A stretch of 64,000 bases of DNA from Daphnia pulex. Taxonomy: Eukaryota > Arthropoda > Branchiopoda > Diplostraca > Daphniidae. This document shows, piece by piece, positions 821 to 25,019 of the stretch. Location: positions 9,486,001 to 9,550,000 of the forward strand of contig NC_060023.1 in assembly GCF_021134715.1 (NCBI RefSeq), in the 5' to 3' direction. The notes under the pieces are model-generated. The model had not been told where the DNA came from. It did not search any database and saw nothing but the letters and a program-made list of their open reading frames with translations. The position numbers and the translations under genes are program-made. Every line of letters begins with the position of its first letter. Positions within the stretch are counted from its first letter, which is position 1.

Positions 821-3800
821 TCAATAAGACGCCGGCGCTGAGGGTCGGGGCGTTAGGACGACGCGGAAGGCATCGGGTGGTACGGCGACGCAAGCTTTGG
901 GTAGGTGGATGACATCCTCTGAGGCTGAGACGTCGAAATTCTGAAGCAAAGTGGCGAGTGTGACGAAACTGACGTGCTGGACCAGCCGGTAACCCATGCA
1001 GGCTCGTTTGCCAGTGCTGAACGGAATGAAATATTCCGGTTTGACGATTTTGCCCTGGATGAGGAACCGCGCAGGATCGAACGTCAGAGCCTGGTCGCCC
1101 CAGTAGTCTGGACTGATGTTCAGCTCGTAGTTGTTGAGGAATACCATCGTGCCTTCTTGAACGTCGTAACCTTTAAATAAAAATGAGAAAAAGAGAAACA
1201 ATTAGATCAGTATATTCGAAAGATGATGATTGGTTCTATTCAAATGAGATTATTTTTGTCAAAAATATTTACCGGCGACGGATGTGTTTTGCATGGCGAC
1301 GTGGGGGACAATGGGCGACGAAGACAATCTCAACGTTTCCAGGATGGTGGCTTCCGTGTAGGGCATGCTGGGCCGATCTTCCAGGACGACGGGTCGTGAA
1401 TTATCGCAGGTGACTTTGCGGATCTCCTCCTGGATGTTGGCCATGACGTGAGGGCTGGAGCAGAGCTCGCCGACGGCCCTCATCAGCAAATTGCCGATAG
1501 CCGAGTGTCCGCCGAGAAAGTCTTCCAGCTCGTAGAGAACGTGATTCCAGTCGAGTTGCTTTTCGTTGTCGTTGTGATCGGCAGCCTGGACATCTTCGCC
1601 GTTGTTCTTCTCATTTCCCAGTTGGCTGAGGAGGACGTCGGTGAAATCTCTGGGGTTGTTGACGTCCATGGTGGATCGGTGCTCGTCGATGATGGTCTTG
1701 ACGATGAACTGGCGGATGTCCGTGCCCCACGACTTGAGCTGCTGCATGTGGCGGCGGTAGACGGGCATGAGCCAGGGCAGGAAATCGACAGCGTAGCCCT
1801 GGTTGATGTCCCAGAAAATCTGGTCAAAGAGACGGACGACTTTGCCGAATTCCTTGTTGTTGTAATCGAAGCGGGTGCTGCACATGTAGTGGGTGAAGAC
1901 GTTGGCGCACATGGTCATCATCGTCGTCTTCAAGTCGATGCCTTTGCCGGCCGCCGCCGCCGTCATGAGCGACAATTCGTTGACCATCAAGTCGCTTTCG
2001 GACGTCAGGACGCGGCTGAGAGTGTCGAACTGCATCGAATCGACGCGCGGGTGGCACCAGTGGCGGGCGATCGAACGGCGATCTCTCTGCAGGTACGACC
2101 AATCGCACAGGGCCAGTGCTAAAGAAGAAGAAAAAAAAATAACACGCACACGTCAATTATTTTGAATTCGCTCAGACGACTGGTCATTTTGTGCCGCTAG
2201 ACATTGGAACATTTCTATCATCTCTTTAGGAATATTGGCATTGACTGGAATATATTTTTGTTTTCGGAATACTTGGAAAGCGGAAAACTGGTAATTTTTC
2301 CCAACTGCCAAGTCGGCGGGATTTTGAATTAATATAGACGACCCCTCCCTAGAGTTAGAACGATGGTCATTTCCTTATTACAGATATAATACTTTTCTCC
2401 ATTTGCGTCACACAATAAGCGCCCGTCGTAGTAGAGTCGGGTGTGTGTGTCTATACAACAGGTGTATCGCTCTCTCTCTCTCTCTCTCTCTGCTAGTGGA
2501 AAGCTTTCGACTATATACAGTAACATCTAGAGTGAAAATCAAGGTCAGGGTCGGCCCTGGGAAACAGACTGACCGAAACCTTGAAAAGAAATATAACGAA
2601 TCTCCTTCTCTAGATACCTTTTTCCCACTATATAACCCTCGAATTCTTCCGATTGGATTTCAAACGTCGCCAAAGAAAACGAAAATTTTTGTCACACAAA
2701 TTTTTTTTTCCAATTCCCAAATTGAAAGTTTTTTTTTTTTACGTTAAGGGGAAAAATTCAATTAGCATTACAGAAAATAAAATCCCCAAGCGAATTTTGT
2801 CGACCGTATTTTTCTACATCATAACGCTCGCGCTAGAGCTAAAACTATAATTACAAAAACCAACTGTGTGTGTGTACTTATATATATGTTCTGGAAAAAT
2901 ATTATGACTTTTGCGCACCTGTTGAACTGCCCAACACACACAACGGAAGGTGGACGTTTGTGATTCATTTTCGTTGGCACTCGCAATTAACTCTGCTTCA
3001 TACATATCCCCTCATGTGCATTTTCGTCATATTTTTTTTTAAGTGCTGGGCCCCACATGCATCGTTATTATTTGTGCATACATGAGAAATACGTTTTTGC
3101 AGCAACGTTTCCTACAATTCTCTACTACATGTTGCCCCGGAATATATTTGTACAGCTCAGGGAACGATCGGAAATTGCGCAATTATTTCTGGGCCTTGCC
3201 ATTTTTTTTTTTTTACATTGGCACCCACGTAGACCCAATGACAGACACATTTTCTAGGGGGCACATAGGGGTTGGACTGAAATACAAATTCCCCAATTTT
3301 TACCCCACCGAGAAAAAAAAAATGTATCATATTTAATTACACCTGTAGCCCGACCTCGAAATATATCGGCCAAACCCCAATAGAATTGAGTCATTATCTT
3401 TTTAAAAAACGTAATAATGATGCAGCACAAAAAATCTCTCGTTCTTCCTCAAAATTCGATTTCCCCCCTTTGCTGATTTATTTTTAGACACTTGTTGCCA
3501 GTTGCTAATGATTACAAAAGCCCAGGGGTCGTTTTAACCGTAGGAACAAGTCTAAAAATAGCCCCACCTCTATTCGATTTGATTTTTATGAGGAAATGAA
3601 AATGAAAATAATCAAATGATGAGACTTACAATTGTCGCGATCGCCGCCGAAGAGAATGTCGTAGCGGATAAAGTTGGGCCGTCCGCCAAAGTGGGGGCCC
3701 TTGGTGATGAGCACCTCCTTGATGAGCTTGAAACTGTTGACGACGACGCACGGCGTCGAGCCCAAGGTAATGCTGAAAATGTCGCCGTAGATTTTGCTGA

Positions 3801-4218
3801 GCTCAGAGAAAGCCTCGAACGGGACCTCGTACTGGCCCAGCAAGTGGAGCGAGCCGATGACGGGCCAGCCGACCGGGCCGGGCGGCGGACTCCACGGCTT
3901 GGCGACAACCGTCGTGCCACTTGTGGCGGCCGTAACGACAGGAACAGCAGCAGAGGCTTTAGCGGCCGACGATTTGGCCAGGTGAGAGCGGACCAATCGC
4001 TGGGCTTTGCTCTTGATGCGGAAGAAGAGTGAGTCGGCCATTTGCGGGGGGCCGTTCTTGCGCCCGTTGAGCCAGACGAGCGTGAACGTCAGGGCGGCCA
4101 ATGTGGTCAGGAGGACGGTGGTGGCCGACACGAAGACGGCGCCAATTTGTCCAACGCTGAAACCACCGACCAGCGAAGCCGATGAAAAAGACGAGCTCTC
4201 GACAGTCAACAGCTCCAT
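821..4218 (-). CDS. spo: CYP307-family cytochrome P450 (spook-type)
   Basis: Three exons on the minus strand: 4218-3630, 2118-1273 and 1170-821, joined in phase, giving 594 residues. The start is the first ATG giving a membrane anchor. Residues about 20-50 form a hydrophobic anchor, followed by an Ala/Ser/Lys-rich linker and the proline hinge PPGPVGWPVIGSLHLLG. P450 landmarks seen are the K-helix ETLR, a FDPARF meander motif and the heme loop FSTGKRACMG with Cys536 as the thiolate ligand. The I-helix reads GGHSA rather than the usual AGxDT, as I recall for CYP307. The stretch around GPHFGGRPNFIRYDILFGGD is close to insect spook/spookier. CYP307 enzymes act in the 'black box' steps converting 7-dehydrocholesterol towards ketodiol, probably at the ER. 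Intron 1 is about 1.5 kb and carries a CT microsatellite. Its pathway partner neverland lies divergently 19 kb away. Identity as CYP307 is secure; spook versus a paralogue is not. Confidence 0.93.
2469..2491. repeat. (CT)n microsatellite in spook intron 1
   Basis: About ten uninterrupted TC dinucleotides inside the first intron of the CYP307 gene. No function implied. Confidence 0.9.
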
Positions 4219-4536
4219 TTTTCTTACGGGTTGTTCTTGTTGTTGTTGTTGTATTTTTACTGCGGGGAGGGAGCTGGGCAACGGCGCGGTTCTCGTCACA
4301 AACGGAAATGTTTCAACAAACCGCAGGGACGAGATGAACGAATTAAAATTTGGACTTAGATTTTTCGTCGCGGGACAAATAAAATTGGGACAGACAACTG
4401 AGTTGTTGTTGCAGGACTAGTGGGAAGTTTTTTGGATTCTCAAAAAATTCTGCGGATGGGGGGATTTGTTGTTATTGTGTCGGAAGGGACTTTGGTGTGT
4501 GTGTTTCGGGGTCTTCCTCAACTGATGAGAGAGAGG

Positions 4537-4568
4537 CGGTGGTGGTGGTGGTGGTTGGTGGTGGTGGG
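4537..4568. repeat. GGT-rich simple repeat
   Basis: Tandem GTG/GGT trinucleotides followed by a G run, in the presumed spook 5' UTR or just upstream. Confidence 0.8.
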
Positions 4569-4611
4569 GGAAAAAGGTGAAGTGGGAACTGGTGTACGGT
4601 TCGCCGACGAC

Positions 4612-4646
4612 TGTGGACCCGGTTCTAGCGGTTGGCGCGATTTATA
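4612..4646 (-). promoter_or_regulatory. Candidate core promoter of spook (TATA + initiator)
   Basis: On the minus strand a TATAAA box occupies 4646-4641 within CTTATAAATCGCG. About 32 bases downstream there is a CCACAGTC stretch (4616-4609) that fits an arthropod initiator. Transcription from there would give a 5' UTR of roughly 395 bases before the ATG at 4218. The spacing is right for TATA/Inr, but this is inferred from sequence only. Confidence 0.5.
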
Positions 4647-5135
4647 AGAGCGCGGAGCGCGGGGCGGGCAGCAACTGACGGACTCTCGGAGAAGGAAAGA
4701 ACCAAAAAGAATAAAAAAAGAAAAAGAAAAAATTTGTTATTAAGGAAGGGGGAGGGAACGAGATGGGAGGAGGCTATACAACACTCTTGCGCTCTATGTA
4801 GTAGTCTAGTAGAGTTATAGTAGTATATACATACAATGCTGCGCTGAGACTGCTTATATAACCAGACTATGACGTGACACACAATAACTCGTCTGAATTA
4901 TCTAATTGAATTTTTCATGAAAAAAAACCCCAAAAAAGATTTCCGCTAAATTTTGGAATTTTGTTTCTGCGTCATTGAAAGATTTTTATTTTATTTCTTT
5001 TTATTAAAAACTTTTTTTTTTCTTTCCTAAAAGAAAGTCGCGAACCGCTTTGCTCTGCTCTCTCTCTCTCTGTGTGTTTGTATGGACAGTGTTTAACTCC
5101 GCCCACTTCTGATTTTTTTTTCTCCTCTTCTTGTG

Positions 5136-5154
5136 TCGGTCGGTCGGTCGGTCG
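5136..5154. repeat. (GTCG)n microsatellite
   Basis: Tandem tetranucleotide GTCG/CGGT, about four and a half copies. Similar ACCG/GACC short tandem runs occur near 8540 and 12080, so this motif recurs across the spacer. Confidence 0.85.
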
Positions 5155-5593
5155 CCGGGGCTGAGATTTTAGTCAAGTCATATGACGCAACAACTCGAGT
5201 TGACAATCCCAACTTCTCCGTTAGACTTGTTTTCTTATAAGCCATCTTCTTAATGATTTGATTGATTATTACTTTTTTTCTTGCACTTATTCTGATTATA
5301 TTACATAGCCTTCAGGTGTACATAAATAAACACAAATTAGAGAACCGGTGGCTGTTTTTGGCCGGGGGTTAGGCTGCTGCTATATTCGTTGCGATCCGCA
5401 TCAATGAAAAAGTGAAACTCTTCTTCAACATTTTTGTTTTTTCTTTCTCTCTCTCTCACGTAATCAACGACCAATCAACAGGTTCAAACTGTTGCCCCGC
5501 AACGGACCCAAAATCTCAAGCTCCGCCCTCGATTCCCTTCAAACATGTACAGTTTAGATTGTACAGGTAACACGTAATTAAGTCCAGTCAATT

Positions 5594-5618
5594 GTAGTAG
5601 TCGTAGTAGTAGTAGTAA
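5594..5618. repeat. (GTA)n microsatellite
   Basis: Imperfect tandem GTA trinucleotides interrupted by one GTC. Confidence 0.8.
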
Positions 5619-5710
5619 GTCTAAATATAAACCGGGCAATAGTAAAGAAAAAACCGTTGAATATGTAGAGTCGAATCAGTTGGAACGACAAACAAGCTAT
5701 AAGGGGATTT

Positions 5711-5872
5711 TCATTTTCTATTTTCTATTTTATTTTTGGTATTTTTTCGGTTTTCTGGTCAAGGCCAAGGTCTTCTTCTTTTATCATCTTCTTCTTTTTC
5801 TTTTTTATCTTTTTTTTTTCTTTTTTATATTCCTCTTCTTCTCTATATATCCCTCCCTTTTTTCTTAGACCT
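5711..5872. repeat. Pyrimidine-rich tract
   Basis: About 160 bases that are almost all C/T on the plus strand, followed at about 5889-5917 by a purine-rich (GAA)n run. This gives apparent open frames of Phe/Leu/Ser that are composition artefacts. Confidence 0.8.
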
Positions 5873-8800
5873 CCTTCTTTTTCACGTTGGAAAAAGAAGA
5901 AGAAGAAGAAGAAAAAACTTCCCCTTTTTATTCTCGTCCTGAAAACCGAAAAAATTCCTTTTTTTCTTCTTCTACCTGTTGTCGGTTCGATTCCTCTCTC
6001 TTTCCTCTACGCACTCTCACGTGACTTGACGTCAGCGGCCACTCGATCCCGCTATATGCGCTCACGCCTCCCACCCGAAAAAAAAAGTGAATGGGCGGCC
6101 AATTTGAAACAGATGAACAAACGAAAATAAAACTAGTGTCAATACAGCCCTGGCCGACATATTCTGGTTCATGAATAACAAAAAGGTGGCCAACTATGTA
6201 TCGATTAACATTGAAAACTGCCGGCTCGGCCAACAACACCTGTCGCACTTGAACTTATAGAGCGCCTATCTACTGTCAATATTTAGATATTGACACATAT
6301 TACAGTTCTGATGAAATTTATTTTGATTAACTGCCACGCAGTTTGCGCGACAAATGGGAAAGGAGAGAGTAAAAACACCTGCCGTTTCGACTGTTTCAAT
6401 TCCAAGTTCGAATTATTTTTACGTTGGAAAAAGGTGTGTGTGTGACTAGTATATCCGGGTGAAGTTTTTTTCGTGCGACCCTGCCACATGTGTGAGTCGC
6501 ATAGGTGACGAGAAATGTGTTGTTTGAACAGCTGGGCTCTCTATGATCATTCGACACTGACACCAATAGACATACGTCAACGCCTGAAATTCTGCCGAGT
6601 AATGTAGACTAACTACTGGAAAATGGAGAGGAGAACAAGAAATGTGGCCAATGGAATATTTGAATCGACCGTAGATATCTTTTCCATCACGGATACTCTC
6701 CCCGCCTAACACGGCTGCCAGTCCCGCCATATTGAACGGAAACAAAACGGAGTGAAATAAAAATGACGGCCAAACGCGTCAGCAACAGGTGCATCGCATC
6801 GGGTTAGACTGGAAAATAAAAAGGTCTAAATAGCTCAGCCCACAGGAACGAGAAAAAAAAATATGAATAAAAACAAGGGATGGCCGTGAACTTTTTAGAA
6901 TCCCGGATCTGTGTTTCAACTGATTGACGTCATACTCGGTCATCTCTACGTCAAAAAAAAAAAAAAAAAGAATAATTCAATTTTCTTTAAACAAACTATT
7001 AAAAATGAAAAGTAAACTTGCGGTAAGGGACGCGGGGAAATCCCAAACCTCCAATAACCAGAAAATAAAACTCCCCTATTTCGAATGAATAGATTTTCCT
7101 GTTTTTCTTTTATACCGTCCCAAAGTCAAACACACAGATAAACGTTATACAATTCAAACTGGGCTGCTCCTTAAAGACCAGGTTGTTTTTTTGAGTGTTA
7201 CCCCCCCTCATATTTTTTATTATACCTACACAGAGCCATACGTCCTTTTCGACTAGATAGCGCATCAGCCACCGAAAATGTGCAATTCATTTAGAATACC
7301 TGTGGGGACTGGCAGGGCTGTCTAAAGAACACATATTTGCTCTGTGGACGTATCTTTTTGATGCGATTGTTTGGCGTGCGCCTCAAATCGATTGGCGTCT
7401 GTGTGTTTTGTACCTGGCGCCATAATTATTCCCCTTCTAAATAAAAAATGCCGCCCCATTTTTTTGTGGTTGAAAAAACCCTGTCTTAAACAGCCAAACA
7501 GGACCAAATAATCAATAATAATAAAAATTTTATTTGGTACCCCCCTCTCAAAAGAAAATATCAAAATTAAATGAGTCCCTTTGGCGCAGTTTTGAAGTGT
7601 GTCAACAACACAAAACTCCTACCGTTTTCGGGCTGCTGGCACCGATGAGGCGATCGCCATTTAAATAAAGAGAGAAGAAGAAGATGCCACACATACTTAT
7701 CAATTGCATTTCGCCAGTTGGCAGAAAAGAAATTTTCCTGTTCAAACCCGCGCGAAATGCTGTGGCGAAATGTGCTGTGTAGAAATCGCATTCGAATAAT
7801 AATACGACAATCAAGTTGGCAATACAGATAGAAATATATATAAGAGAGCTCGTGATTGGTTTGCGTACGTATCATTATTATTCCGCGAAAAGAAGCGAAA
7901 GTCTGCGAGCTATATAACATCATGCCCGGCTCCCGCGCACACAATAGACGCCGGTCAACCGGTCCGCCTTTTTTAGGTTGGGCTTTGTTTTTGTTTGGTT
8001 GTTGTTGCCCGTCTCTCTCTCTCTCTCTGTTGGACTGTTGGCGAGTGCAATGCAACGCTGTTTGACCGCCGGAGAAAATCATGGAGAAGATAGAAGATAA
8101 GCCAAACGGGTGGTGGTGGTGGTGTAGAAAATTCAAAAGAAAAGAACCCGTTACATTGGCGATGGCTTTGGCTGATTGGTTGACCGTTGGACGTTCGGGA
8201 AAGAGAGAGAGCGCCGGGGTCGGCTGCTGGACTCCTCATGTGGCCATGCACATATACATATGCATATGTAATACATAGATATATCTATTCGGTCGTTATG
8301 CAGTCGAAATATCTGGCTCAGATACTATTATAGGATCGGTTTGTTTCGTTTCTTTCTATTCGTCACTTTCGTCGCTTTGGCCCGGCCCTCCGCCACGCGC
8401 TGACCGGAATCGGAGTATAGAAAAAAAAAAAAAATCTCGTCGTCGGTTTGTTTTGGTTGTTATGTCCTTTTCACGTGGGTCCAGCGTGAAACGGGCAGGG
8501 CATGTCCTGGATTTTTCTCATTCCTAGATTGCACCACACGACCGACCGACCGACCAACCAAACAGCAGCGCCATAACATCACTCGGTTTCCAAACAGTGA
8601 AAACCAAAAAACACAAGCGAGAGAAAATATCCGGGACACCGGAAGAATTTTGATTTCAGTTCAACCGAAATCGTCTGGAATTTCTTCTAGTTTTTTTTCT
8701 CTCCCAGACACAATCATTTGCTATTTTTCGCCCTCAATTTAAAAAACAATAAAATGTGCACTCTTGTACCTTTTTGAAAAAATTATTATTATTGTTATAG

Positions 8801-10347
8801 GCTATGCTCTACTGTTCGCAATCTAGTGGGACAACAATCGAGTCCAGGTGTGTGCCAAAATCTTTTTTTATTTTTATTTTCTCACGAATGTGGGACGCTA
8901 TAAACAAAAGAAAGAGAGATTTCGCGAGTCCCTCATTCAGTTTATGTCCAAGAAATTTGCAACTGTGCCACATGCAGCAGCAGCAAATAAATCGAATTAA
9001 ATCTTTCTCTTATATAGTACATATAATGAAAGGAGGGCGTGGGCATTTATTATTATAGTCTCAAGCTAAGTCTGTCATCATCCAGATTTTTCGAATAAAA
9101 AGACAACTGCGCAATAACTGGATTGCAAAGCGTGGTGGCAGGGAAAGGTGAGGAATCCGAATCTTTAAAAAGAAAAAATTGAAAAGAAAAAGTCCACCCC
9201 ACTCCCGCCACGCCACCCCACACGCCTGTTCTCCCGATCTATCGCTTGTCCCGTTATGTTTTCTGTTTTTCTTTGAATTTCAATTTTGCTTTTGTTTGTT
9301 TGTTTGCTTGTGTAACCCGCATTTTGATTTTGATCCACACACACAAACAACGGGCGGTGCCATCCACACAGGCATTGCGCATGGCGAATACCCAAAGTGA
9401 ATCCGTTAGCTTTTTTCTCGGGTGCATTTCGTATGCGACCGGGAAAAAACGAAGCGAATAAAATATCAATAAGCCATTTACATATTACAATCGCGGTTGT
9501 AATATGGTCCTGGAGTGCCGCTCTTCAGCCAATCACGTTGTTCGCATACCAAATTTTGACCATCTTCTTTATTCGATATCATCCGCAAAATTGCCAAAAG
9601 AAAAAACAATAAAACTCTCATAAAATCTCTGAAATAATTAAACCAGTTTTTGTTGTTTCACTTGTTTGAATATTCAATCGACTGAATTAAAATTCCCCGC
9701 AAGTGCAGATCCATTTCAGATATGTCCTGGGCGATTTTTCTGAATGAAAGTTTTGTTTTCCACAAGATAGAGCGCCGATAGATTGAGGTTGGAAAATCTG
9801 GTCAATGGGCAGCTACAGCCGTGTGGGCTGCGCGTGTCAATTGATTACGAAATCGATCAATCATTCTGGAACAAAAAAACATCAAAAGGCCGAGACAAAA
9901 GGGGGGCAGAGAACATGCTAGAAACAAAACATGGGTTGGAGAAGCTTCGACTGACTCGACGTCTCAGCACGTCGTTTTTATATAATAAAAAGAAACGAAT
10001 TCGTTTTATGAGTTCGGAGAAGTGGGGAAGGAGAAAATGCAAAAGTTTTGTATTTTTATTTATTTCTTTTAAATTTTTCTTTTGTTTTGTTTTTCATTTT
10101 AGGGTTGAGCGACGGAAAAAGGAAAGCACCGTTAGAAAACGCCGATGACATAGCATAAAACTCTATACGCATACCGATGTATTTAATTCATTTCCCTTTA
10201 AATAATTACGTGCGACGTTGCAGATTTCTTACAAATTCCCCCCCGAAAAACGGTGAATGAAAATCCAACGAAAATAATTCGTCTCGAATCTGAAATAAAT
10301 CTTTAATATCCCGTCGGTAGATCAAATTGAGGTCTCGTCCCTTCCGC

Positions 10348-10357
10348 GTCACGTGAC
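10348..10357. promoter_or_regulatory. Palindromic extended E-box GTCACGTGAC
   Basis: Perfect 10-base palindrome with CACGTG core in the spook-neverland spacer. This sequence matches the known consensus for bHLH-leucine-zipper factors of the MiT/TFE and USF type. CACGTG-like cores are also bound by bHLH-PAS pairs, which include the juvenoid receptor Met. Function here is inference only. Confidence 0.4.
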
Positions 10358-13300
10358 CCCCCAGCTATACGTGCTGCGTGTTGGGTGGGTGGGGCGGTCG
10401 GAATGGATACACGACAAAAAACAACCGAAAATATACACACGAAATCAAAAAGCATTTCGGCTGGCTATTACATACTGTACGTTGTAATTGATTGGACTAG
10501 AACCGATAATGTTCCGCTCGTGATGTAATGGTCAGTTTACACACTCCCGAGAGAAACCGGTAGTGATTGCCCACCCCCCGGACCGCGGCAATTCAAGACA
10601 CAAATTTCTTTTTCTCTGTTTGTTTTACATGGGTTGGATATCCATTAGCAACAGGGTACGATTCGCCCGAGTTCCCACACACATCACGCGGTCCAATATG
10701 TGCGCGCGTAACCAGACTCCCGCAAATGTTCCCCCCTGCCGAATAAAACCAAAAAGAAGTGCAACGCTACACGCCGAGCTGCGCGCGCCAGACCTCTGAA
10801 ATCATTGGCCACCATTTCCTTCTCCCATATTCTTCGCTTCTCACATCGCTAAAAATTCACGACTATTTTTTCCTTTTTTTCTCCTTTGGGCGGTGTTTTG
10901 GTTTTTTGGCAAATAAAAAAGAAGAAGAAAAAAAAAACCCCAACCAACCGCCAAGTCGGCACACACACGGTATATAGTTCTATAGTTATCAGATCGCGTT
11001 ACTGACTCACTGCACTCCTTTTGCTTTAAAAGAGAAATAAGATTGACCGGAAATTTCTCGTTCTGTGTCATCGGGGAATTTGAAATTGGCGCGCTTGAAA
11101 ATTCAAAAAAAAAAATTTAACTTTTTCAAATTTTCCCGCCAACGTATTTTTTTAGGATTGCGCAATCTTCAATAAAAATTGGCAAACCATTTTCTCTTTC
11201 ACGCCCATTTTTGTCTGTCGATCTACGTGACCCGCTTATCTATCAGATATTCGTCATTGGTAATCACACACATTATTTCATCATTTTAAGTTGAAATTTC
11301 GTCAAAAAATAAAAAAAAAATTCCATTTCGCTTTACACGAGCACGTGAAAAACGAAATAATAAAAAGAAAATGTCGACGAACTTCGGACAACCTGTTTTC
11401 TCTTGGACCACACAATAAAACGACTTGCGGTACTTTTCCGTCGTCGTTTGTTATTGTCGTTGGCATACTATTATTTCCTATCCTTTCTGGGCATTTGGTC
11501 TTCTCCCTTGATTTATGTTTCTGTCGACTTGTCATCGGTTTTTACCTTCTCTCTTTTAACTTTTAATTTTATTTGCTTGTACCCGAAAAGAAAAGAAACA
11601 AACAAACAAAAAACCTACGGGAATAATGACGACGACGACCCAGCAGCTGTAATAATACTACGTAGCTAGGGGGGCCTCTACGATGGGGGCTGATTTGCAT
11701 TGTGCAGTCGTGACCGTCGGTTGTCCTTCCGCTTTATTTTTCCACCAACAACAACTATCGTCTCCTGTCCAGCAACGGAATTCCCCATTTTCTTATTTTA
11801 TTTTCTTTCCCTTTGCGCGCAATTCTTGCGGTGGTGGTGGTGCCGTCGCCAGCAAAGAAACAAACAAAAAAAATTTGTCTTTTTATCTTCTTCCGCGTTG
11901 TTGTACCTTCAAGTTCATTGTCACGAACGCTAACAGCAGACTTGGCTTTTCCATCTCTCTCTCTCCGCGTGCTGGGAAATCTTGATTTTTCTCTTTTATT
12001 TTATAGAAAGCCAGCTCAGCTCCTTTCACGGGATTTTCACCGCCTGTGTGACGTCGTCGTCGTGTGTCCATTCACGGACCGACCGACCGACATTCGACGC
12101 GCGTCAATAAAACAAAAAAACAAAAAACTCATCGATTTTTGATTTTTGTTTTTGTCGTTTGCCACATCCAGACGGTCATGGTGACCTCAATTTTTCGATT
12201 TGAAACAAAACATTTTGTTCGGTTTGTTTTGAATTCTGAATTGTGCTGTGTGCGTTGTCTTCCCTGTTGCGCAAGAGATATGTGTCGACCCGGCTGCTGT
12301 GGTGGATATGATCCGGACTTCGGAACCGCCCGGAAGGGCCCTCCTTCCGGCCCCCGGTCTTATTGGCTCGGGACTGATGGCTGATGGGGCTGAAATTGAA
12401 CGGTCGCCGCCGCCACCGACGACGGCCAAGGTATCGGGAGTATCCGGCGGCGGCGATGCCTGGCGACGGGTGACGTCGTGGGGACACATTACATTTCGCG
12501 TGCATGGTGCATCGGATAACGGGCATATTCTTATATGATGATGATCCGTTTACCTTGATTTCAATTTCCCATCCGGTTGATGGCTGATGGGGTCGTTCAA
12601 ATTTTTTGGGTGTCGTCATCAATTTCATCGCCATTTTCCGTTTCTTTTCTCTTTTCTTTTCCCGGTAGTTTTAGATTTCACAGGTTGACCAGGTTATTTC
12701 ATCATCTGTGAACTTGTCCAGGAATATTTTTTGTGTCTAACTTCTCCTGCTTAAACGACCATATAGCCGCCCCCCCCCTTGCACCATGACCGGCCCCCAG
12801 CAGGCGCGTCATGGTGAAAGAAAAAACACGCCAGAAAATTAGGTCAAATTTCTTTCTCCATTTTGGAATGAAGAGAGAGAGAGAGAGGAAACAAAAAGGT
12901 TCTTATCGTGTGGGACTCGCCTTCTTCTTCTTCTTCTCCCTGGAACATTTTTTGAAAACGTCCAAGACTTTGGTGTCACCTGGTGTTGAAATTGAGCGAA
13001 AAACATTTCGTTTTCTTGTTGGGGATTTCCCATCTCATCACACAGCGCCGGAACGATGCGGAAGGATTTCTCTCTCTCTCCTTGCACGACGAAGGAGTTA
13101 AGTGCCAACACGTGTGCCTCGTGTGAGACACGCACCGATCGGCCGCTCCTTTTCGTTCCTCTTTTATTTTTTTATTTTTTGTTTTTATTTTTTGAAGGGC
13201 ACCAAGACACGCCCTCTTGATTCTTCTTCTTCTCTCAACCGGAGAAACTCATTTCATTTGTGTTATTTTAATATTCAATGTTAACCCTCTCACCTTCCCT

Positions 13301-14699: not shown

Positions 14700-15960
14700 T
14701 ATTCCTCTGTTTCGTCATAGCCGAAATAGAGGGCGTTTTAAGATTTGTGAACCGGAACTAAAATACTACCGTACCAGGAGGTGCCGGTGTGGCGGCAAAA
14801 CCCTTCTTGGTTGAAAAATTGTTCAAGTTGCACTTTGCTTCAAGTGTTTCAAGTTCAAATGAATTGGATTGTTTACTCACAGACACAGCTGTGATGTACA
14901 AAAACAGGCCTGATCTGCAGTCGTTCAAAAATGAGTGATCTAATAAACCCTGACTGAGAAAAACAAAAACAACAAGATAAAAAGTTTCAGCCAACTGCAT
15001 GGCCCAGGAATAATCCTACTCCGTACTACATAACGATTTAAAATTAACGCCACCAAATTGTCCAAAAGGAAGAATAGAGATGAATTTGTCCTACCTTTAT
15101 GCCTTGGAAATCCACAGCCAGGCATCCACAAGTGCTCCATCCAAAGTTGAATCCACCAGGATGGATAGGGTAAAGGGTGTCCTCGTGAATACACCCACAT
15201 TCGTACACGGGCGTACACGAGGGCATTTAAAGGAAGAGGAATTGAAGAGATCCTTAACTCGGACGGCATCGGTAGTTTCTCCAATGGGATACTGTTTATC
15301 TAAATAAAAAATTTTAACAATGAGTTATACGACAAATATTTAAAGAAACAATACTAAGCAAGGAAAAGTAGAAAATAACAGTTGTAAACCAGGGTATACC
15401 CTAATAGTTATTAAACAGGAGAATTGAAGGTTTGAATGTAATACACTACATTTATGCAAGTCTTGCATCATAAACAAATCTGGCAGGTCACATGCAGGTT
15501 TATAAAAGTAACGAAAATTATTACCTGAGCGATGATACTGTGATTGTTGATGATGGCAGGAGGTTAACAATCAAATCACATGACTGGAAGTCCAGCACAA
15601 GAAAAACTTTGCTGTTACGATGGCTGGCTCAGGCCTCAAACCTGCACAGAGGAAAAGGTTACATATATAGTGCAAACAAACTACCATGCATAGACAAGGG
15701 GATAATTAATGACTCATTAGTTAGTAACAATTCACAAACTTGGAACAAGTTTAACTCTGCTATTGAAGCTCCCATAGACATCCCATTTTTGTTCTGAGTA
15801 TTTACCCGCCAAACAGCATGGAGAGAATGGAAAGCTGCGACACCAAAGTTGACATGGCGATGACCACATTTTTGTAATTTTATTTTCGTGTATCTTCCAC
15901 GTGACCACGTCCAAAAAGTGATCAATAGTTGTCAATCATTCCGTTTTTCTTTGAAATCTT
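14700..15960 (-). ncRNA. Candidate spliced transcript without a long ORF
   Basis: Five minus-strand segments have well-formed splice signals in consistent order: first exon ending 15808 (donor GTAAAT), 15641-15525 (acceptor TGTGCAG, donor GTAATA), 15299-15095 (acceptor TATTTAG, donor GTAGGA), 14953-14881 (acceptor TTCTCAG, donor GTGAGT), and a last segment starting 14757 (acceptor ATTTTAG). All three frames of the second segment contain stops, so the chain as a whole is non-coding. One short ORF beginning at the ATG at 15226 crosses two introns and would give about 74 residues, Cys-rich at its start (CGCIH, STCGC). I do not recognise it. It could be a lncRNA, a microprotein gene or a decayed gene. 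Confidence 0.3.
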
Positions 15961-18350
15961 AGTCTACTGTTGAAAATTATAGTCTCCTTTGGAAATTTTA
16001 GTCTCCGCTTGTAAACGAACGAAAGCAGCAGACGACACTAATATTCTAATTAGTAATAATTAAGGTATCGATTAGAATTTATTAAAAATCGACCCCTAAA
16101 TCCAAAAAACGCAAACAAAGAAAAAAGCGGTTTGAACGCCAGCAATCAACATCCGCTGAACAGATCGGTATTATTTTCAAATCAAATTGTTCGTCTCAAC
16201 AATTTGATTACGTCCACCCACCACAGACAAGATTAAAGTAAAAGTTTGCACGAAACCCGCCCTAATAACACCCCCAGGACCCTCTTGGAAGCCAAAAGGG
16301 AATAATTATTATTAGATAAGAAATCAAATAATATTACATGCCCGTACTGAGGAATTTGCTTTTTATTTTAACGCTTCTTCTTGGTGGCGATCATGGCGAT
16401 GGGATTGGGTCGGGTGATCAATTCGAAATTCAATCACACGAACAAGTCGAGCAAGTTCTTCTTCTTTCAACTTTGCTCACGTATGAGAGTTCTCCGATGA
16501 CATCCATTCGGGTGTCATCCCTTCGCCATTCCACATCAGAGGGTTCGAATAAAACTTGGACAGCCGGAATGAATTTGGAGCTACCGGAAGATGAGTTTTT
16601 GTTTCACACATGTATACGTCGGGATATTATTCGATCGATCTTATATACTTTTGCACTTGGCTTATTATTATTATGTGTATATTAGGTTCGGTTGTTTTTT
16701 GGTCTCGAGAGATGTATTTTGGAGAATTAAAAGAAAAGAAATAATAAATATTTTGTCTTTAGATATTTTCCTTTAGATTTTTGAATTCATTTCATTTAAT
16801 TGGTTCGGCAGAAGAATAAGCAAAAGTGCCGACTCTGCACGTGATCCATCGGGTAGATAACCTTATAATGCCGCAGGTCCCCCGGGCTGGATGACTCTCG
16901 GGACGGGATCTCAAGAATACCGCTTGTCACGAACGACGACGTCTCGCCGTTCATGAATACTGAATGAAAAATCGTAGAGAATAAAAAACACAAAAAAAAA
17001 CATCTTTTTTTGGCAACAACAATTTGAATACATTGGAAAAAAATAATTTAAAAAATGAAAGAAAAAATCTTTTAAATTGATTTTTTTTTAAATTTATTTC
17101 CCCAACTGCCGGGACGGCAAACGGGAATCGACGGTGGCCCTTCTTCATATTCGGGGCTGTAAACGGAGACTATGTGCTGGATGAAAGGGAAAATACGAAA
17201 AAGGGATCCGACGACGAGAAGAAACCAAAAGACTCGGAAAGACAATGAAAACTTGTTGTCTGTGGTCAAATTCACAAAAGAGTTTCGACTCCTATAAAAG
17301 CGAAGACAAAGTCAGAGCCCATGTGTCTAGAGTCTAGACAGACGTCCAGAATCCCTTTTACATCTGCCGATGGAGAAATAAAGAAAAAGAGTCCAGGGTT
17401 TTGGGTGTGTCCGGGTGTCCATGGGTTTTTTCTCCGTTCTTCATTCAGTCCGCGAAAATATAAATGAATAGAGACGTAGATTATGCGCTAGTCACATCTT
17501 TGACTATCATTTTTAATTTCTTGTTTTTTTTTTCTTCTCATTTTCGTCGAGATGATTTTCGCTTTTTGGGATTTTTCTTGTTTTTGTAGAAATATTATTC
17601 ATATCAGATGAAACCGGACTGGCCGAATAAATAAGAGACCAGCTTTGCCCATAGCTTAAACCAGTGCATTTCCATAGTTGGACAACTCGAAACAATTCAA
17701 AAATGAACAGCAACTTTTATAAGTATCCGGTCATCCAGTGCTTTCAATCGGCAGAACCCCACAATCGAATCCTCCTGCTATTTTTTGAGCTTCTTATTTC
17801 AACTTCATTTGGTATTATATACTATACTAAGATGCCTGTCGAGAGAGAGTGAGAAGAACGCCATCCACTACAACGCTCTTTTCAAGGTTGAAACTTGACT
17901 ACTACTATTACCTGTGGGCTGTGGTACGGTTTGATGTGACTTTCGTCCTGGGCAACTTGATTCCAGTTGGGGCTGTTCTTCAACCTGTCATCCCTTTTTC
18001 TTTTCTTTTTTTTTTTTAAACTCAAACCTTTTGAAAAATTTGAAATAGGGGAAGCCAAATTTTTCCAAATCAAAAAAATCTTTTTTATCTTTTCCGGAGC
18101 AGATCGTATACAACTTTTGTCGCCAATTTGCTGATAGCAAACAACTTGTTAAGGTCTCAAACGTGTGCCGATAGAGAAATTATTTTTTTTTTTTTTGCAA
18201 TTAAGAAACGAGAATTTCTGACTTTTTCCTTTTTCGTCTTTTGCTTTTATTACCTACCTGTCCTACCTGTATAGTAGATAGTTGTAGCGTCATTATGTGG
18301 GACCCCATCTTTCCCAATCCTCTGCAGACTTTTTTTTTTCTTCTTTATTT

Positions 18351-18370
18351 GTGTGTGTGTGTGTGTGTGT
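18351..18370. repeat. (GT)10 microsatellite
   Basis: Uninterrupted GT dinucleotide run in the spacer. Confidence 0.95.
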
Positions 18371-20397
18371 TGGGTACTAGAGTAGACGTGATGTGTGTTT
18401 GACTATCGTTGGTTTCATCCTCAACGACCCTTCTTCATTCTCCTCCTATCGACCTCCCCATTCCTCCGAAATCAATATAGACATACCTTTAGGGATTTCT
18501 CTTTGTTTTTGTCCTTTCATTCTTGTTCGTATGATTCTACTCCAGACATTCTATTTGTATAGTACACACTCGCATACATTTATGAATGTCAAGGACGACA
18601 TTTTCGTTTTTTCTATTTCTTTTTCATAATTGTCATTCCACCCTCTTATCGAACGTTGATATCCTTCGATGTATTAGAAGGAAAAAGACCCAGAGAAATG
18701 TCCCAAATGAATGTGTAGTATTTTTACTATATAGAGTCTTCTTCTTCTTCTTAGAGTCTTGTCCAGATCAGAAGGTTATAACTATATATAGGCTATATAC
18801 ATAACGTTATATGACACTCAAGTTGTAAAACTGTTGGGTATATGGGACCCATTTTTCAGTTGATACAACACACAAAAGAAATTGCAGCTGAATTGGTTTA
18901 ACCGGGTTTAACCCTTTTCGAGTTGTTATATTTTAGCGCAGTTTATAATAGACGGGACCGATGAGTCGAACACAGTTGCTGGGCCCGCCAAATAAGGTTC
19001 TATTTAGCCTATAGTATACATATATACCTTTTCTTTTCTTTGAAAAAATAAAATTTAGTCGTAAATAAAAAAGAAATAGAAGAGGAAACCAGAAAACACA
19101 AAAAAGAATGGGAAGAATGCGTAGAAGATTTCGATTTATTTTTTACGAGGTCGTGGATATAAATAGTTCGACCCATTTATACTATTCTTGTACATATATA
19201 TGTCGTTTTTTTGGTCATCTGTCATTCAATAGAGCATGGATATATCTTCCGGAGCATATAGAGTCGGCAAAGGTACCATAAGAAATACTTATAGAGAAAG
19301 AAGAAGAAACAAAATAAATAACTCGAAACTGAAAAGAAAAAAAGGGTTAAAAATAAACACGCATCGATCGAGTTGACCGTATTTGGTTGGTCCATCCGAA
19401 ATAGTAAAATAAAAAAAAAGGGAAATAAAATCAAGAAAGAAAAAAGAAGAAGAAGACTGGCTACAGGCGAATGAAGGTTGAATATAAGGTGGAAAAGAAA
19501 TCAACAGTAAACGAGTTATCTCTATTTGAGAAAAATATACAAAACAGGAAATCATCATCACGAAAAAAGAGTAAAAACGAAAAATCCAGTATACCGAGAG
19601 AGCAGTGGCCCTTTTATTATACACTACTATATGCTATGGATGAATAATGGTCTCTTTGTTCATTTCGGTTCAACGAATTGGTATCCGTGCCGAAAATTCG
19701 ATTTTGCGGCCACTAAATTATTCACTGAATTCATTATCTCCACGTCGATAATAAATCCATTAATGACACAACACAAGACGGCATTTTTACTTTCGTTCGA
19801 ATTCGAAATGGACGGACGCGAACTGGATATTGGCTTATACCAAACGCATAATTATTTTATGGCTAAACCGTCGTCGTTGAGGTGTTTCTCCTCTATTCTT
19901 TTTCGAGATGGAACATTCAAGATATACGGTGGAAGAACAAGTGCTTGCGAGAGTGAAGCAGCTATATAAGTTCGGCTCCTTTCAGCTTTTTTTGGCGGCC
20001 GCACCTTTTGAATTATAAAGACCTGTTTTTTTTCGGTTAGTTTGCTCGACGATTTGAATTCCCTTTTTTTTTCGCCCGATTTAGTTTGAGCTGTTTCACC
20101 TTTAACTATACATGTAAAATAAATTATAATACTGCACTCTACAGGCCAATGACCAGCCAGTCGTCCACACCCATTTCATCGTTTCCCTTTCACGAACAAA
20201 AATCTTCTTCGACAATCATCAATTCAAACAATATATAACGTTTAAGGACGAATAGACAATTAATTTCCCTTTCTTTTATTCGTTATTCATCCGTATAGAA
20301 TAGTACGGGTTGTTGGGACGTTACAAGGCTATGCGTAGACCAGCCAATTCTTGCAGTGTCACTTTTGATTGTTCGGTAGCGATAACGAAATGATTCA

Positions 20398-20419
20398 GAA
20401 GAAGAAGAAGAAGAAGAAA
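20398..20419. repeat. (GAA)n microsatellite
   Basis: Seven uninterrupted AGA/GAA trinucleotides in the spacer. Confidence 0.9.
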
Positions 20420-21208
20420 CAAAAAAAGAAACAAAGTCTATAATCCAGTTTGGGGACTGCTGTGATTTGAATTTTGGATTCGCCGATGAGAGTTGCTGGG
20501 GCGTAACCCTAGATGTTTCAAAATTTCGTGGAGGTCTTATTGCTCAATTTTCAGAAAAAAACTGGAAAAACTCGACAGTGTCCATCAAAGTGCATTCACA
20601 CGTAAATTTGAGAACGAAAGAATCATACTATACGATCAAAAATGTGTAGATTGTTACATTTTCGGAATATATTCACGTTCACCACACATATTTTTTCCGT
20701 ACGATGTGTATTTAATGCTGATTCAATTTATTCATCTCTTCCCAGCTGTTTGTAGGTTGCGCATCTGGCCTGACAATTTTTCCCTATTTTTCCAACGGCC
20801 GGTATAGACTCGGCACTTTTCCAACTGACGGCAATATATTTCCGGCGCAAGTGTCGGCTCTGTTTGGTCATAGTGGCATATCTTTCATTTCCGTTCAAAC
20901 TCGTCGTTATTGATTTGTGGACTGTCGCAATCGAAATTTTTGTTTTCCCCTTTTTCCGCCCGTCAACGACATTGTGAAAGGTTCATATCGTTTGGTTCCG
21001 AATAACCTTGCGATGAAAATCACCGTCATTATATATGACGTGATACTGTGCGCTATGTACATAAACGAAATTTCAATCAAAGGCTTTGTATAGTATTAGT
21101 CAAATCGATGCTTCACACTCAAGCCGAAATAATTAGATAAAAGATGAAATCAGTGACGCATTTCGGGAACTATTCCTTGCCCTTTGTGTAAGTAGAACGT
21201 AGACGACC

Positions 21209-21235
21209 GGTCCCGGCGTCATATATGCCGGGACC
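21209..21235. repeat. Perfect inverted repeat (9-bp GC-rich stem, 9-base loop)
   Basis: Left arm GGTCCCGGC (21209-21217), loop GTCATATAT, right arm GCCGGGACC (21227-21235). The arms are exact complements. The left arm overlaps the palindrome GACCGGTC (21205-21212). Such a GC-rich stem stands out in AT-rich DNA. No mature small RNA that I know is recognisable in it, and the stem is too short for a standard miRNA precursor. Confidence 0.7.
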
Positions 21236-23264
21236 TGATTTCAGTTCAAATCACCCTGCAACTTAGAAACTAGATTACCTTGCGTGACTTTATGCTAACC
21301 TTAAATAATTGAATGGTGCATTCAACCCCACTTTTACTCACGTGTTGACTGACTTTAAGAGTCATTTGATTTTAGCGAGTTTACTCGTTTAGGTTACATT
21401 CATCACTTATACATTTTCCAACCTGCCTTATCTTTTGTTCCTTTAACGTCATATGCGACTTAAAGGCTACACGTCAATGGTATTGAAATATTAGTCACTT
21501 TCCTTATTATCACTAAGTCAACGTAGAACGTAGTACATCCCATATCTGAAACGCACCGTGTGCGCTGTATATGTTGTCGAAGGATCGAGAAAATCCTTTT
21601 TGGTATTTTACGGTTCTATAATGAAATAAGATAAAAGTGCACTGATAATGAGCCGAGTATAGTGAAACATATTTAAACACGCATGACGCATTGAGCGGGC
21701 ACCACACATTCTTGTTGGCCTGTGTAGCGACCGATCCCCAAACTGCGCTCTCGATATTATTCATATACAAATCATCCCGAATCGATCGATCCGTTTTTCT
21801 GGTTTTTCAACTCTTCTTTTTGTTTTTGAATTGCTGTGCCTGGTTTTTTTGAATTGATTGAGGTCAGAAGTTTAAACCATCCAAACATACAGTGAATTCG
21901 TTGACACTTGATTCCTGACAGTTTTTAAAATTTAACAAAAAGACGATCATATTCCGTTAGATCGCCAATTCAGGAAGAATTCCAGGAAATATAAAGGAGT
22001 CGGACTACTACTAAACTCAAAAAAGAAAACATTTGTGTTCGTTATACTAGTACATTATAGAGTGAATTGGATATATATATATAACCCCCAAAATAGCTAT
22101 TTCTACGAGTCCCAAGGCAAAGGCTCGAGAGCATAGTCGCATTCATTTGTTTGCTGACTCGGCTTCGTTCATCACGTCGACAACCAATTTTCAAACGGCA
22201 TCGTCAATTTCTTCTGTTTCTACCGGCGACGACACGAATTTCTATACACCATTGGCTCAACCACACAGGTAAAAAAAAAAATAATCAAATGTTTGAGCTT
22301 GAAATTTCTATAAAAATTGAATAAAGTTTGGTGGAAATGTACATACAGAGCGTGGGCGCCCAGCACGCTGAGCGCGGGACAGGTAAATATATTTCAAATG
22401 AGATAGGGACACCGGGGTAATGTTGTGAAAGAAAAAGGGACGACAACAAGTCAGGTGCTGGCCAAGGTTGACGCAATCTCGCCTTTCTGTTTGTGGAGCT
22501 CATCTAAAATGTCCCCATCACCACCAACCACCCTCTCTCTCTCTCTCTCGAAAAATAAAACACAAGCGAAAAAAGCCAGCAGCTCCGATTCATCACTTTC
22601 CCTTATCTCTGCTGCTGCTGGCCTAGCACAAAAGTTGGCCCCTCCTATATATATTCCTTACGTTGATTCTTTTTATTTTTACAAACGAAAAGGTAAAGAA
22701 ACAAAAAAAAGATATAGAGGAAAAACCACAAGGCCCTACGGCAACCAAACGGCTATCCACTTTACCTGTAGTCAAGTGTTTCCCCCTAAAAGTGGTGTAG
22801 CCGTTTCAGCCAAACAAAGTGAAGATGTGCAACTAGGATAAAAAGCAATTGCACAGACTGTATGCCAGCGCAGGTTGTTAAGGCTGGTCAAGGTAAAATA
22901 ATACAACGATTCGTAACGTTCGGAGAAAAATAGTCGAATGGAAATTGATGGGCAAAAGTCACTAGGGAGGGATATAGCGCTGCTGGGGGGAGAGGAAAAT
23001 GAGCTTTGTATTTCGTACGCCGCTGACTATATCATCTTACAGCGTTGTATCTTTTTTTGTTTCCTTTTTTATTATTGGTTTCACTCTTGCAACAGTAGCT
23101 GAGACTCTGCTGCTGGAAAACACCAAAGGCAAAGGGAAAGCAACAGTCTTGTGTCTGAGCGACTCGTCGACGGTGAGACCCCCACATTCATCTATTATTC
23201 AAACTAGACACACAAAATCCTACAGTTCCATTTCAACGGCATAGGTCTAGACTAGCACGCAAAA

Positions 23265-25019
23265 ATGTCGGCGGATTTCTTCACGTCTCTCAGCTGGACG
23301 GCAATGGACAAGACCACGTTGTTCATTCAAGTCTTTTACACTGTTGCTGCGCTAGTCTTAATGTGGCTCTTGCATTACGTCTTTATCCAACCGCTCAACA
23401 GGATCAGAGTAAGTTTCAAATTGTAATTCAATCTTTTTTTAAAAAACATAAAATTTTTTTTTTGATGGCAGGATTTGTGCGACACGGGCTACCAAGATCA
23501 AGCGAGATGGGATCGCTACGGAAGGACAAAGCGCCAGCTGGCCAACGAAGCTAGACGGAACAAAAAAGTCGGCGACGTGCCGCCCGTCTTTCCCAACGGA
23601 TGGTTCGCTCTGTGCGAGTCGGAAGACCTCAAAGCCGGACAAGTCTTGGCCGTCAAAGCTCTCGGTAAAATCAAAATCAAATAATTAAATCAATTTCAGA
23701 TGAATGACGTAACAGTTCAGAGTGACCTCTGTTAAGGACGTGACGCAGTTATATAGTATAGGCGCATAATCTAATATATTAAAATGGCTGCTGCCTAGAT
23801 GATGTAACACTATAATTGGTAATCCTCCAACGTTACGTATATCTTTATACAGACGAGAATCTGGCCGTTTTTCGGACCGAAGAAGGAAAAGTATGTGTGC
23901 TGGACGCTTACTGCCCTCATTTGGGAGCCCATTTGGGCATAGGTGGACGAGTTGTTGACGATTGCATCGAGTGTCCATTTCACGGCTGGAAGTTCAGCGG
24001 GCACGATGGCAAATGCACTTCTATTCCATACTCAAAAGGAAAAGGTTGAATTTCGAAATGCATCTAAACAAAAATAAAAAAACAGGAATATTATAGTCAT
24101 ATGTAAATTACAATTATGTTTTGAAAATCATGATACCAGTTCCGACGAGCGCTCAAGTCAAGAAATGGCCGAGCCACGAAGTCAACGGCTTCGTTTTCTT
24201 CTGGTACCACGCCGAGACGGACAAGAGTTTGGAACCAGAATGGACCGTTCCCGAATTGGATGTCATCAGCTCAGGCCGTTGGAAATACCGCGGACGGACC
24301 GAGTACAAAGTCAACGTTCACATTCAAGAGATACCTGAAAATGGAGCTGACGTGGCTCATTTGGCCCATCTCCACGGTCCGTCGATGCTGGGAGGATCCG
24401 ACCTGACATTCATCGACAAATCAAACTGTCCCGGCAAATTAAACGACACGTCGGCGCCCATTCTGCATCATCACTGGGAGGTGGGATGGCAAGGCCCGGA
24501 GCACGGAGCGGCCGATAGCCACATAGCTGTCACGACCATCAAGCACGATTTGCGTCTTTTCGGCCGCATACCCTTCATCTTGATGGAAGTCGAAGCCAAA
24601 CAGATCGGTCCCGGATTGGTTTATTTGACTCTGGACACTTCGCTGGGCCGTTGCGTCTTGGTTCAGACTGTTACGCCCATTGCGCCGTTCACTCAACGGG
24701 TATTACATCGATTGTACGCCTCGCCAACTGTCATCGCACCTTACGCCAAACTGATTCTTTGGGGCGAAGCTATTCAGGTATTCATTCATCAGATGGTTTT
24801 GGTAAATTCTTATGATTTTTAACTGACATTGAGGGATTGTTTTAGTTTGAGCGCGACGTGGCTGTGTGGAACAACAAAACTTACATCAGACATCCGGTCA
24901 TAGTCTCCGAAGATCGAACCATCAGCAAACATCGACGTTGGTACCAGCAATTTTATTCGGAACATTCTCCGCGTATTGAAACCATCATGGAAAGTAGAAA
25001 AGGTTCTTTAGATTGGTGA
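23265..25019 (+). CDS. nvd: Neverland: Rieske cholesterol 7,8-dehydrogenase
   Basis: Five exons: 23265-23408, 23472-23664, 23853-24044, 24140-24777 and 24846-25019, in phase, 446 residues. It converts cholesterol to 7-dehydrocholesterol, the first step of ecdysteroid synthesis. The N-terminus carries one membrane segment (about residues 18-41). The Rieske [2Fe-2S] domain has C133-x-H135 and C153-x2-H156. The catalytic domain has the neverland/DAF-36 non-heme iron pattern E243-x3-D247-x2-H250-x4-H255. The start is the ATG in context AAAAATG that immediately precedes the membrane anchor. All catalytic ligands are present, so it should be active. Daphnia species are known to have more than one neverland gene; I cannot tell which copy this is. 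It ends 336 bases from the convergent CUB gene. Confidence 0.95.

What the first reader, a model, noticed from the sequence alone, without database searches (positions are those of the whole stretch)
821..25019. Two successive ecdysteroid-biosynthesis genes, spook and neverland, are linked and divergent
Seen: a complete CYP307 gene and a complete neverland gene, 19 kb apart, head to head, with no convincing conserved gene between them. Known: Neverland makes 7-dehydrocholesterol and CYP307 acts directly after it; both are expressed in steroidogenic tissue. In Drosophila, as I recall, spookier and neverland also lie near each other in 3L pericentric DNA under related zinc-finger regulators. Inference: this is an ancient or repeatedly selected metabolic cluster with shared enhancers in the spacer, rare for animal steroid pathways.
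Basis: partly seen in the sequence, partly recalled or inferred. Interest (0 to 1): 0.8.

Follow-up and report, generated by a model that had tools for sequence, protein, structure and literature searches.

The report
Known spook-neverland gene neighbours in Daphnia
Two water-flea genes for early steps in making the moulting hormone sit back to back on one chromosome; this neighbourhood was published in 2008 and is shared with some insects, and what remains open is whether it matters for switching the two genes on together.

Summary
A complete 3-exon CYP307 (spook) gene (4218..821, minus strand) and a complete 5-exon neverland gene (23265..25019, plus strand) stand head to head, start codons 19,046 bp apart, with no recognisable gene between. 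It is not new: Rewitz & Gilbert 2008 (PMC2276477) reported spo adjacent to nvd in Daphnia and Anopheles gambiae, and nvd within 60 kb of spok in three Drosophila species. 'Ancient linkage' is thus supported from print; 'shared enhancers' is untested.

Added here: the genome has one CYP307 but two intact nvd genes, and only this one is linked. In D. magna, Nvd2 and spook peak together in the moult cycle while four later enzymes stay flat (PMC6711514). Published Nvd2 primers fit the linked copy somewhat better (9 against 13 mismatches of 35), so Nvd2 is probably the linked gene, on weak evidence. The locus holds many CACGTG E-boxes: 20 in 33.3 kb against 3.9 at genome density, 11 of them in 3.25 kb beyond spook; controls are mixed, and this is a post hoc lead, not a result.

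The parts
821..4218 (-). CYP307 (spook), three exons 4218-3630, 2118-1273, 1170-821, 594 aa
   Evidence: D. magna CYP307a1 primers 1 mismatch of 20 each
4219..23264 (.). head-to-head spacer, 19,046 bp, no recognisable gene; 9 CACGTG sites
   Evidence: (Pfam six frames)
14770..16320 (.). dispersed repeat inside the spacer, family not identified
   Evidence: 51 matching pieces elsewhere in the genome, the long ones mostly 71-84% identical; only 39 of 771 candidates were scored
23265..25019 (+). neverland, five exons, 446 aa, Rieske and KshA_C domains

Best explanation
This is the conserved spook-neverland neighbourhood of pancrustaceans, seen in a Daphnia chromosome. Neverland converts cholesterol to 7-dehydrocholesterol and CYP307 acts in the Black Box that follows. 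The pair were most likely neighbours before insects and branchiopods split and have stayed linked because they share regulatory needs as the regulated entry steps of ecdysteroid synthesis. Most likely each gene has its own promoter and proximal elements, and the gene-poor block around them exposes both to the same moult-stage and sesquiterpenoid (Met) inputs. Shown here: gene identity, layout, copy number, no recognisable gene between. Shown in print by others: linkage in Daphnia, Anopheles and Drosophila; joint peak of Nvd2 and spook in the D. magna moult cycle. Inferred: that the window copy is the Nvd2 orthologue, that selection keeps the linkage, and that regulation is shared in cis.
For: Gene models and domains. 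Published microsynteny in Daphnia, A. gambiae, D. pseudoobscura, D. willistoni and D. mojavensis, against 'little conservation of microsynteny' around Halloween genes in general, phm/CYP18A1 being the other case. Two introns in the gene, as published for Daphnia spo. Single CYP307. In D. magna, Neverland 2 and CYP307a1 reach their maximum at 48 h post-moult while CYP306a1, 302a1, 315a1 and 314a1 show little change (PMC6711514 section 13). Met or Jhamt RNAi raises Spo, Nvd2 and Dib and not the other synthesis genes tested (PMC7546464 section 8). Nvd2 primers: 9 of 35 mismatches to the window gene, 13 of 35 to the C4 copy; they span 59 bp in the window gene, as published. In Drosophila three zinc-finger factors coordinate 'just two genes', nvd and spok.
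Against: Dib also responds to Met/Jhamt RNAi, so co-regulation may not need linkage (where dib lies was not determined). The Nvd2 assignment is weak: 9 of 35 is worse than for known orthologues in the same table (spook 2 of 40, CYP18a1 6 of 38), and elsewhere in the window the forward primer alone finds chance matches with 4 mismatches. Motifs of pathway regulators are not enriched in the spacer: FTZ-F1 1 against 0.93 expected, HR3/E75-type 1 against 0.70, EcRE 0 against 0.04, AGGTCA 4 against 7.75. In Drosophila separate factors serve the two genes (Sean for nvd, Ouib for spok), and about 1.4 kb upstream of spok is enough for gland expression, which argues for separate proximal elements. A second intact nvd is unlinked.
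Confidence: 0.62

Rival explanations
1. The linkage is a passive remnant: the genes happened to be neighbours in the ancestor and have not been separated; expression is controlled by separate elements and proximity does nothing.
For: Fly spok and nvd have separate dedicated factors and a proximal spok element. Dib co-responds with Spo and Nvd2 in D. magna. No shared non-simple promoter words and no enriched nuclear-receptor sites.
Against: Most Halloween neighbourhoods were not kept between insects and crustaceans, and in D. magna the genes that cycle together are spook and a neverland, not the later enzymes.
Confidence: 0.28
2. The E-box-rich DNA in and left of the pair is a shared response region for a CACGTG-binding bHLH factor: methyl-farnesoate receptor Met/Src is the first candidate, with clock proteins and Hairy as others.
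For: 20 CACGTG in 33.26 kb against 3.94 at genome density (15,769 in 133.19 Mb); 11 within 3.25 kb of DNA that is single-copy in this genome; maximum 12 per 33 kb in the first 800 kb of C1. A CACGTG-bearing element binds Met-Tai at Kr-h1 (PMC8487040 passage); Met RNAi derepresses Spo and Nvd2; Per/Tim and Hairy act on Halloween genes in flies (PMC8863297 passages).
Against: Found after testing ten motifs and partly in a stretch meant as a control. The whole window has 15 sites against 9.84 expected, and 6 of 100 shuffles reach 15. The spacer alone (9) is within the C1 range (maximum 10 per 19 kb), ranks only 8th of 64 palindromic hexamers, and is 9 against 6.06 by a maximal-order Markov estimate; for L017 it is 11 against 8.35 by that estimate, which uses the same sites. 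The dense part lies 6.1-9.4 kb beyond the spook stop and may serve the left neighbour. Met normally activates with hormone, so repression needs another step. Genome-wide cluster frequency was not obtained.
Confidence: 0.1

Closest known systems
Daphnia spo-nvd microsynteny (Rewitz & Gilbert 2008, PMC2276477)
   Same: Same two genes, adjacent, in Daphnia; the paper examined the D. pulex genome (abstract), which this assembly resembles (133.19 Mb in 13 contigs; 12 chromosomes for D. pulex is recalled).
   Different: No difference seen in the arrangement (their figure was not visible, only its legend). Added here: exon coordinates, the second intact nvd, the C5 fragment, spacer content, E-box density.
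Drosophila nvd and spok in chromosome-3 pericentric heterochromatin, regulated by Mld/Sean/Ouib (PMC5788525, PMC8863297)
   Same: Same orthologous pair acting as one regulatory module.
   Different: The fly factors are found only in Drosophilidae (PMC8863297 passage); the chromatin state of the Daphnia locus is unknown.
phm (CYP306A1) / CYP18A1 tail-to-tail pair
   Same: Other conserved linkage in the ecdysteroid pathway; a tail-to-tail P450 pair lies at C11:857-865 kb, its plus-strand member fitting D. magna CYP18a1 primers.
   Different: The members are paralogues, so duplication can explain them; spook and neverland are unrelated enzymes.

Membership tests
CYP307 (spook) | P450 domain and haem-binding FxxGxRxCxG | tested here: met
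   FSTGKRACMG; Pfam p450 2.2e-74
CYP307 (spook) | Two introns, as published for Daphnia spo | tested here: met
   two introns as in PMC2276477 section 6; positions were not aligned with insect genes
CYP307 (spook) | Matches sequence published as Daphnia CYP307a1 | tested here: met
   D. magna CYP307a1 primers, 1 mismatch of 20 each
Neverland / DAF-36 | Rieske CxH...CxxH and KshA-type C-terminal domain | tested here: met
   best solved relatives are 3-ketosteroid 9alpha-hydroxylases
Neverland / DAF-36 | Which of the two Daphnia copies is closer to insect nvd | not tested
   no insect nvd sequence was compared; both copies keep the Rieske motif
Conserved spo-nvd microsynteny | The two genes adjacent on one chromosome | tested here: met
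   published
Co-regulated metabolic gene cluster | Shared cis-regulatory element or domain | not testable with these tools
   needs ATAC, Hi-C or reporters; motif scan inconclusive
Co-regulated metabolic gene cluster | Co-expression of the members | tested here: inconclusive
   published D. magna data fit if Nvd2 is the linked copy

The most novel reading that the evidence does not exclude
The spook-neverland block is a cis-regulated two-gene unit, kept since the pancrustacean ancestor, that gates entry into ecdysteroid synthesis and is controlled in Daphnia by methyl farnesoate/Met through a dense E-box array in and beside the spacer; the unlinked second neverland escaped this control.
Probability: 0.08. 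Interest if true: 0.65.

Novelty: already known. Interest (0 to 1): 0.27.

Why it matters
Unrelated enzymes of one animal hormone pathway staying neighbours across insects and crustaceans would hint at selection on gene order. With two intact nvd paralogues in one Daphnia genome, one beside spook and one not, Daphnia offers a natural test of whether the linkage affects expression: same enzyme family, same animal, with and without the neighbour.

Tried and rejected
A gene hidden in the spacer: 12 six-frame pieces against Pfam, none at E<=0.01; Rfam and tRNA scans empty (18, 19). Unknown or non-coding genes are not excluded.

Nuclear-receptor sites in the spacer (FTZ-F1, EcRE, HR3/E75, AGGTCA halves) and GATA: at or below expectation, or 1 against 0.7-0.9. 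A Kr-h1 site pattern, recalled, had no match in 84 kb. Shared words in the two 1.5-kb upstream regions: 10-mers 13 against 4.0 expected, 12-mers 3 against 0.35; the 12-mers all come from one CACCACCAACCACC-like stretch, so I set this aside. Perfect CRE: 2 sites against about 0.3 expected, not pursued.

Recent tandem origin of CYP307 from the P450 cluster about 100 kb away on C7: rejected, other P450 pieces match it at 40% identity or less.

Literature on linkage in other arthropods; among the papers that I opened, PMC2276477 is the one that describes spo-nvd linkage. Most listed papers were not opened. Two mite genome papers report that neverland was not found (passages). Sumiya 2014 is not held.

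Comparison with related genomes: not possible; G000 'has no relatives here'. Viral contigs and genome contigs were not scanned.
Full report
Observation. CYP307 is on the minus strand with three exons (4218-3630, 2118-1273, 1170-821; 594 aa; FSTGKRACMG), neverland on the plus strand with five exons (23265 to 25019; 446 aa; Rieske CxH-CxxH). Pfam gives p450 at 2.2e-74, Rieske at 2.8e-23 and KshA_C at 2.1e-28. The best solved relatives by sequence are CYP17/CYP1 enzymes and bacterial 3-ketosteroid 9alpha-hydroxylases. Start codons lie either side of a 19,046-bp spacer. Six-frame Pfam scans of the spacer, in 12 pieces, gave nothing at E<=0.01; Rfam and tRNA scans of the window gave nothing.

Where it is. 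The window is G000:C7:9486001-9550000 of a 133.19-Mb assembly in 13 contigs. Primers published for D. magna CYP307a1 match with 1 mismatch of 20 each, which points to the genus.

Prior art. I read sections 6 and 7 of Rewitz & Gilbert 2008 and passages of the rest (PMC2276477). [quoted passage not shown] pseudoobscura, D. willistoni and D. mojavensis, and that nvd and spo/spok seem to function in two succeeding steps. Their Figure 2B shows the arrangement; I saw only its legend. The linkage is therefore already known, very probably in this same species.

Copy number. The genome has one CYP307: other P450 pieces match it at 40% identity or less. Neverland has a second intact copy at C4:3463218-3464594, minus strand, 55-70% identical exon by exon and cut by introns at matching points, and a degenerate exon-4 fragment with stops at C5:6536352-6536739. 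A KshA_C family search at E<=1 found only the C7 and C4 genes. Two nvd paralogues are reported in D. magna (passage in PMC5798790). Only the window copy neighbours spook.

Expression evidence in print. In the D. magna moult cycle Neverland 2 and CYP307a1 reach their maximum at 48 h, while CYP306a1, 302a1, 315a1 and 314a1 are described as constitutive (PMC6711514 section 13). A 'Neverland' transcript, copy not stated in the passages, was highest at 0 and 48 h in another study (PMC4529017 passages). [quoted passage not shown] whether Nvd1 was among those was not visible to me. Which gene here is Nvd2? The published Nvd2 primers (table passage) fit the window gene with 9 of 35 mismatches and the C4 copy with 13 of 35, the two copies differing at 15 of 35; they span 59 bp in the window gene, as published. 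This favours the window copy, but 9 of 35 is poorer than spook (2 of 40) or CYP18a1 (6 of 38) in the same table, so it is a lean, not proof. If right, the linked pair is the pair that cycles.

Drosophila. In PMC5788525 (abstract and passages) Sean, Ouib and Mld coordinate just nvd and spok, both in pericentromeric chromosome 3; the review PMC8863297 (passages) adds that other Halloween genes are not in that heterochromatin and that the three factors are found only in Drosophilidae. Ouib acts through a proximal element, and about 1.4 kb upstream of spok suffices for gland expression (PMC4684333 passages). So the pair is one regulatory module in flies, yet with separate elements. This weakens 'one shared enhancer' and leaves 'shared domain or inputs'.

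Surroundings. To the left, the next sizeable open frame (1618 aa, minus strand, no Pfam hit) has its near edge at C7:9465822, 21.0 kb beyond the spook stop; the 20 kb of L017 and L018 gave no Pfam hit. To the right, 1.8 kb after neverland, lies a minus-strand 880-aa open frame without a Pfam hit, followed by open frames with CSRNP, amino-acid transporter, ammonium transporter, MT-A70, OSCP1 and RhoGEF domains. Between the left frame and neverland, about 43 kb, spook is the only recognised gene. The spacer carries a dispersed repeat at 14770-16320; that search scored only 39 of 771 candidates and did not list the spacer's own place, so it does not show the rest of the spacer to be unique.

E-boxes. 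I scanned ten motifs in the spacer. CACGTG stood out: 9 sites against 2.35 by dinucleotide shuffles. The stretch L017, meant as a control, held 11 more in 3.25 kb (C7:9477448-9480695), DNA that is single-copy in this genome. Other stretches: L018 0, L019 0, L020 0, L021 3, L022 0, and the 39 kb right of neverland 6. The genome has 15,769 sites, so 20 in 33.26 kb compares with 3.94; the Poisson value 8e-9 overstates it because sites cluster. Over the first 800 kb of C1 the maximum per 33 kb is 12, per 19 kb 10, per 10 kb 6. Against: the whole window has 15 sites where shuffles give 9.84, and 6 of 100 shuffles reach 15; the spacer alone is within the C1 range, CACGTG ranks only 8th of 64 palindromic hexamers there (first in L017), and maximal-order Markov estimates, which use the same sites, are 6.06 for the spacer and 8.35 for L017. 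Met-Tai binds a CACGTG-bearing element in Kr-h1 (PMC8487040 passage), and Met RNAi derepresses Spo and Nvd2. This makes a testable idea of low probability: clock proteins, Hairy and other bHLH factors are equal candidates, and the dense part may serve the left neighbour.

Verdict. Observation confirmed; arrangement already known; ancient linkage supported by print; shared cis-control untested. The most useful new points are the contrast of a linked with an unlinked neverland and the E-box density. Interest 0.27.

Noticed in passing
L017:1448-4700 (C7:9477448-9480700), left of the window: Eleven CACGTG E-boxes in 3.25 kb of DNA that is single-copy in this genome, with four neighbouring pairs 1-10 bp apart; none in L018, the next 10 kb to the left.
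   Followed up: partly
window 14770-16320: Dispersed repeat of about 1.4-1.5 kb in the spacer; 51 matching pieces listed elsewhere (a lower bound), family not identified.
   Followed up: partly
L020:4852-5233 (C5:6536352-6536739): Degenerate neverland exon-4 fragment with stop codons; no other exons matched there.
   Followed up: partly
L019 (C4:3463218-3464594): Second intact neverland with matching intron points and conserved Rieske motif, not linked to spook.
   Followed up: yes
window 49674-53294: 1206-aa open frame almost wholly Ser/Thr-rich, mucin-like, no Pfam hit.
   Followed up: no
window 26818-29460: 880-aa minus-strand open frame rich in Ser/Thr, no Pfam hit, convergent with neverland.
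   Followed up: no
L021 (C11:857-865 kb): Tail-to-tail P450 pair that fits the published phm/CYP18A1 linkage; the phm identity of the minus-strand member is inferred.
   Followed up: partly
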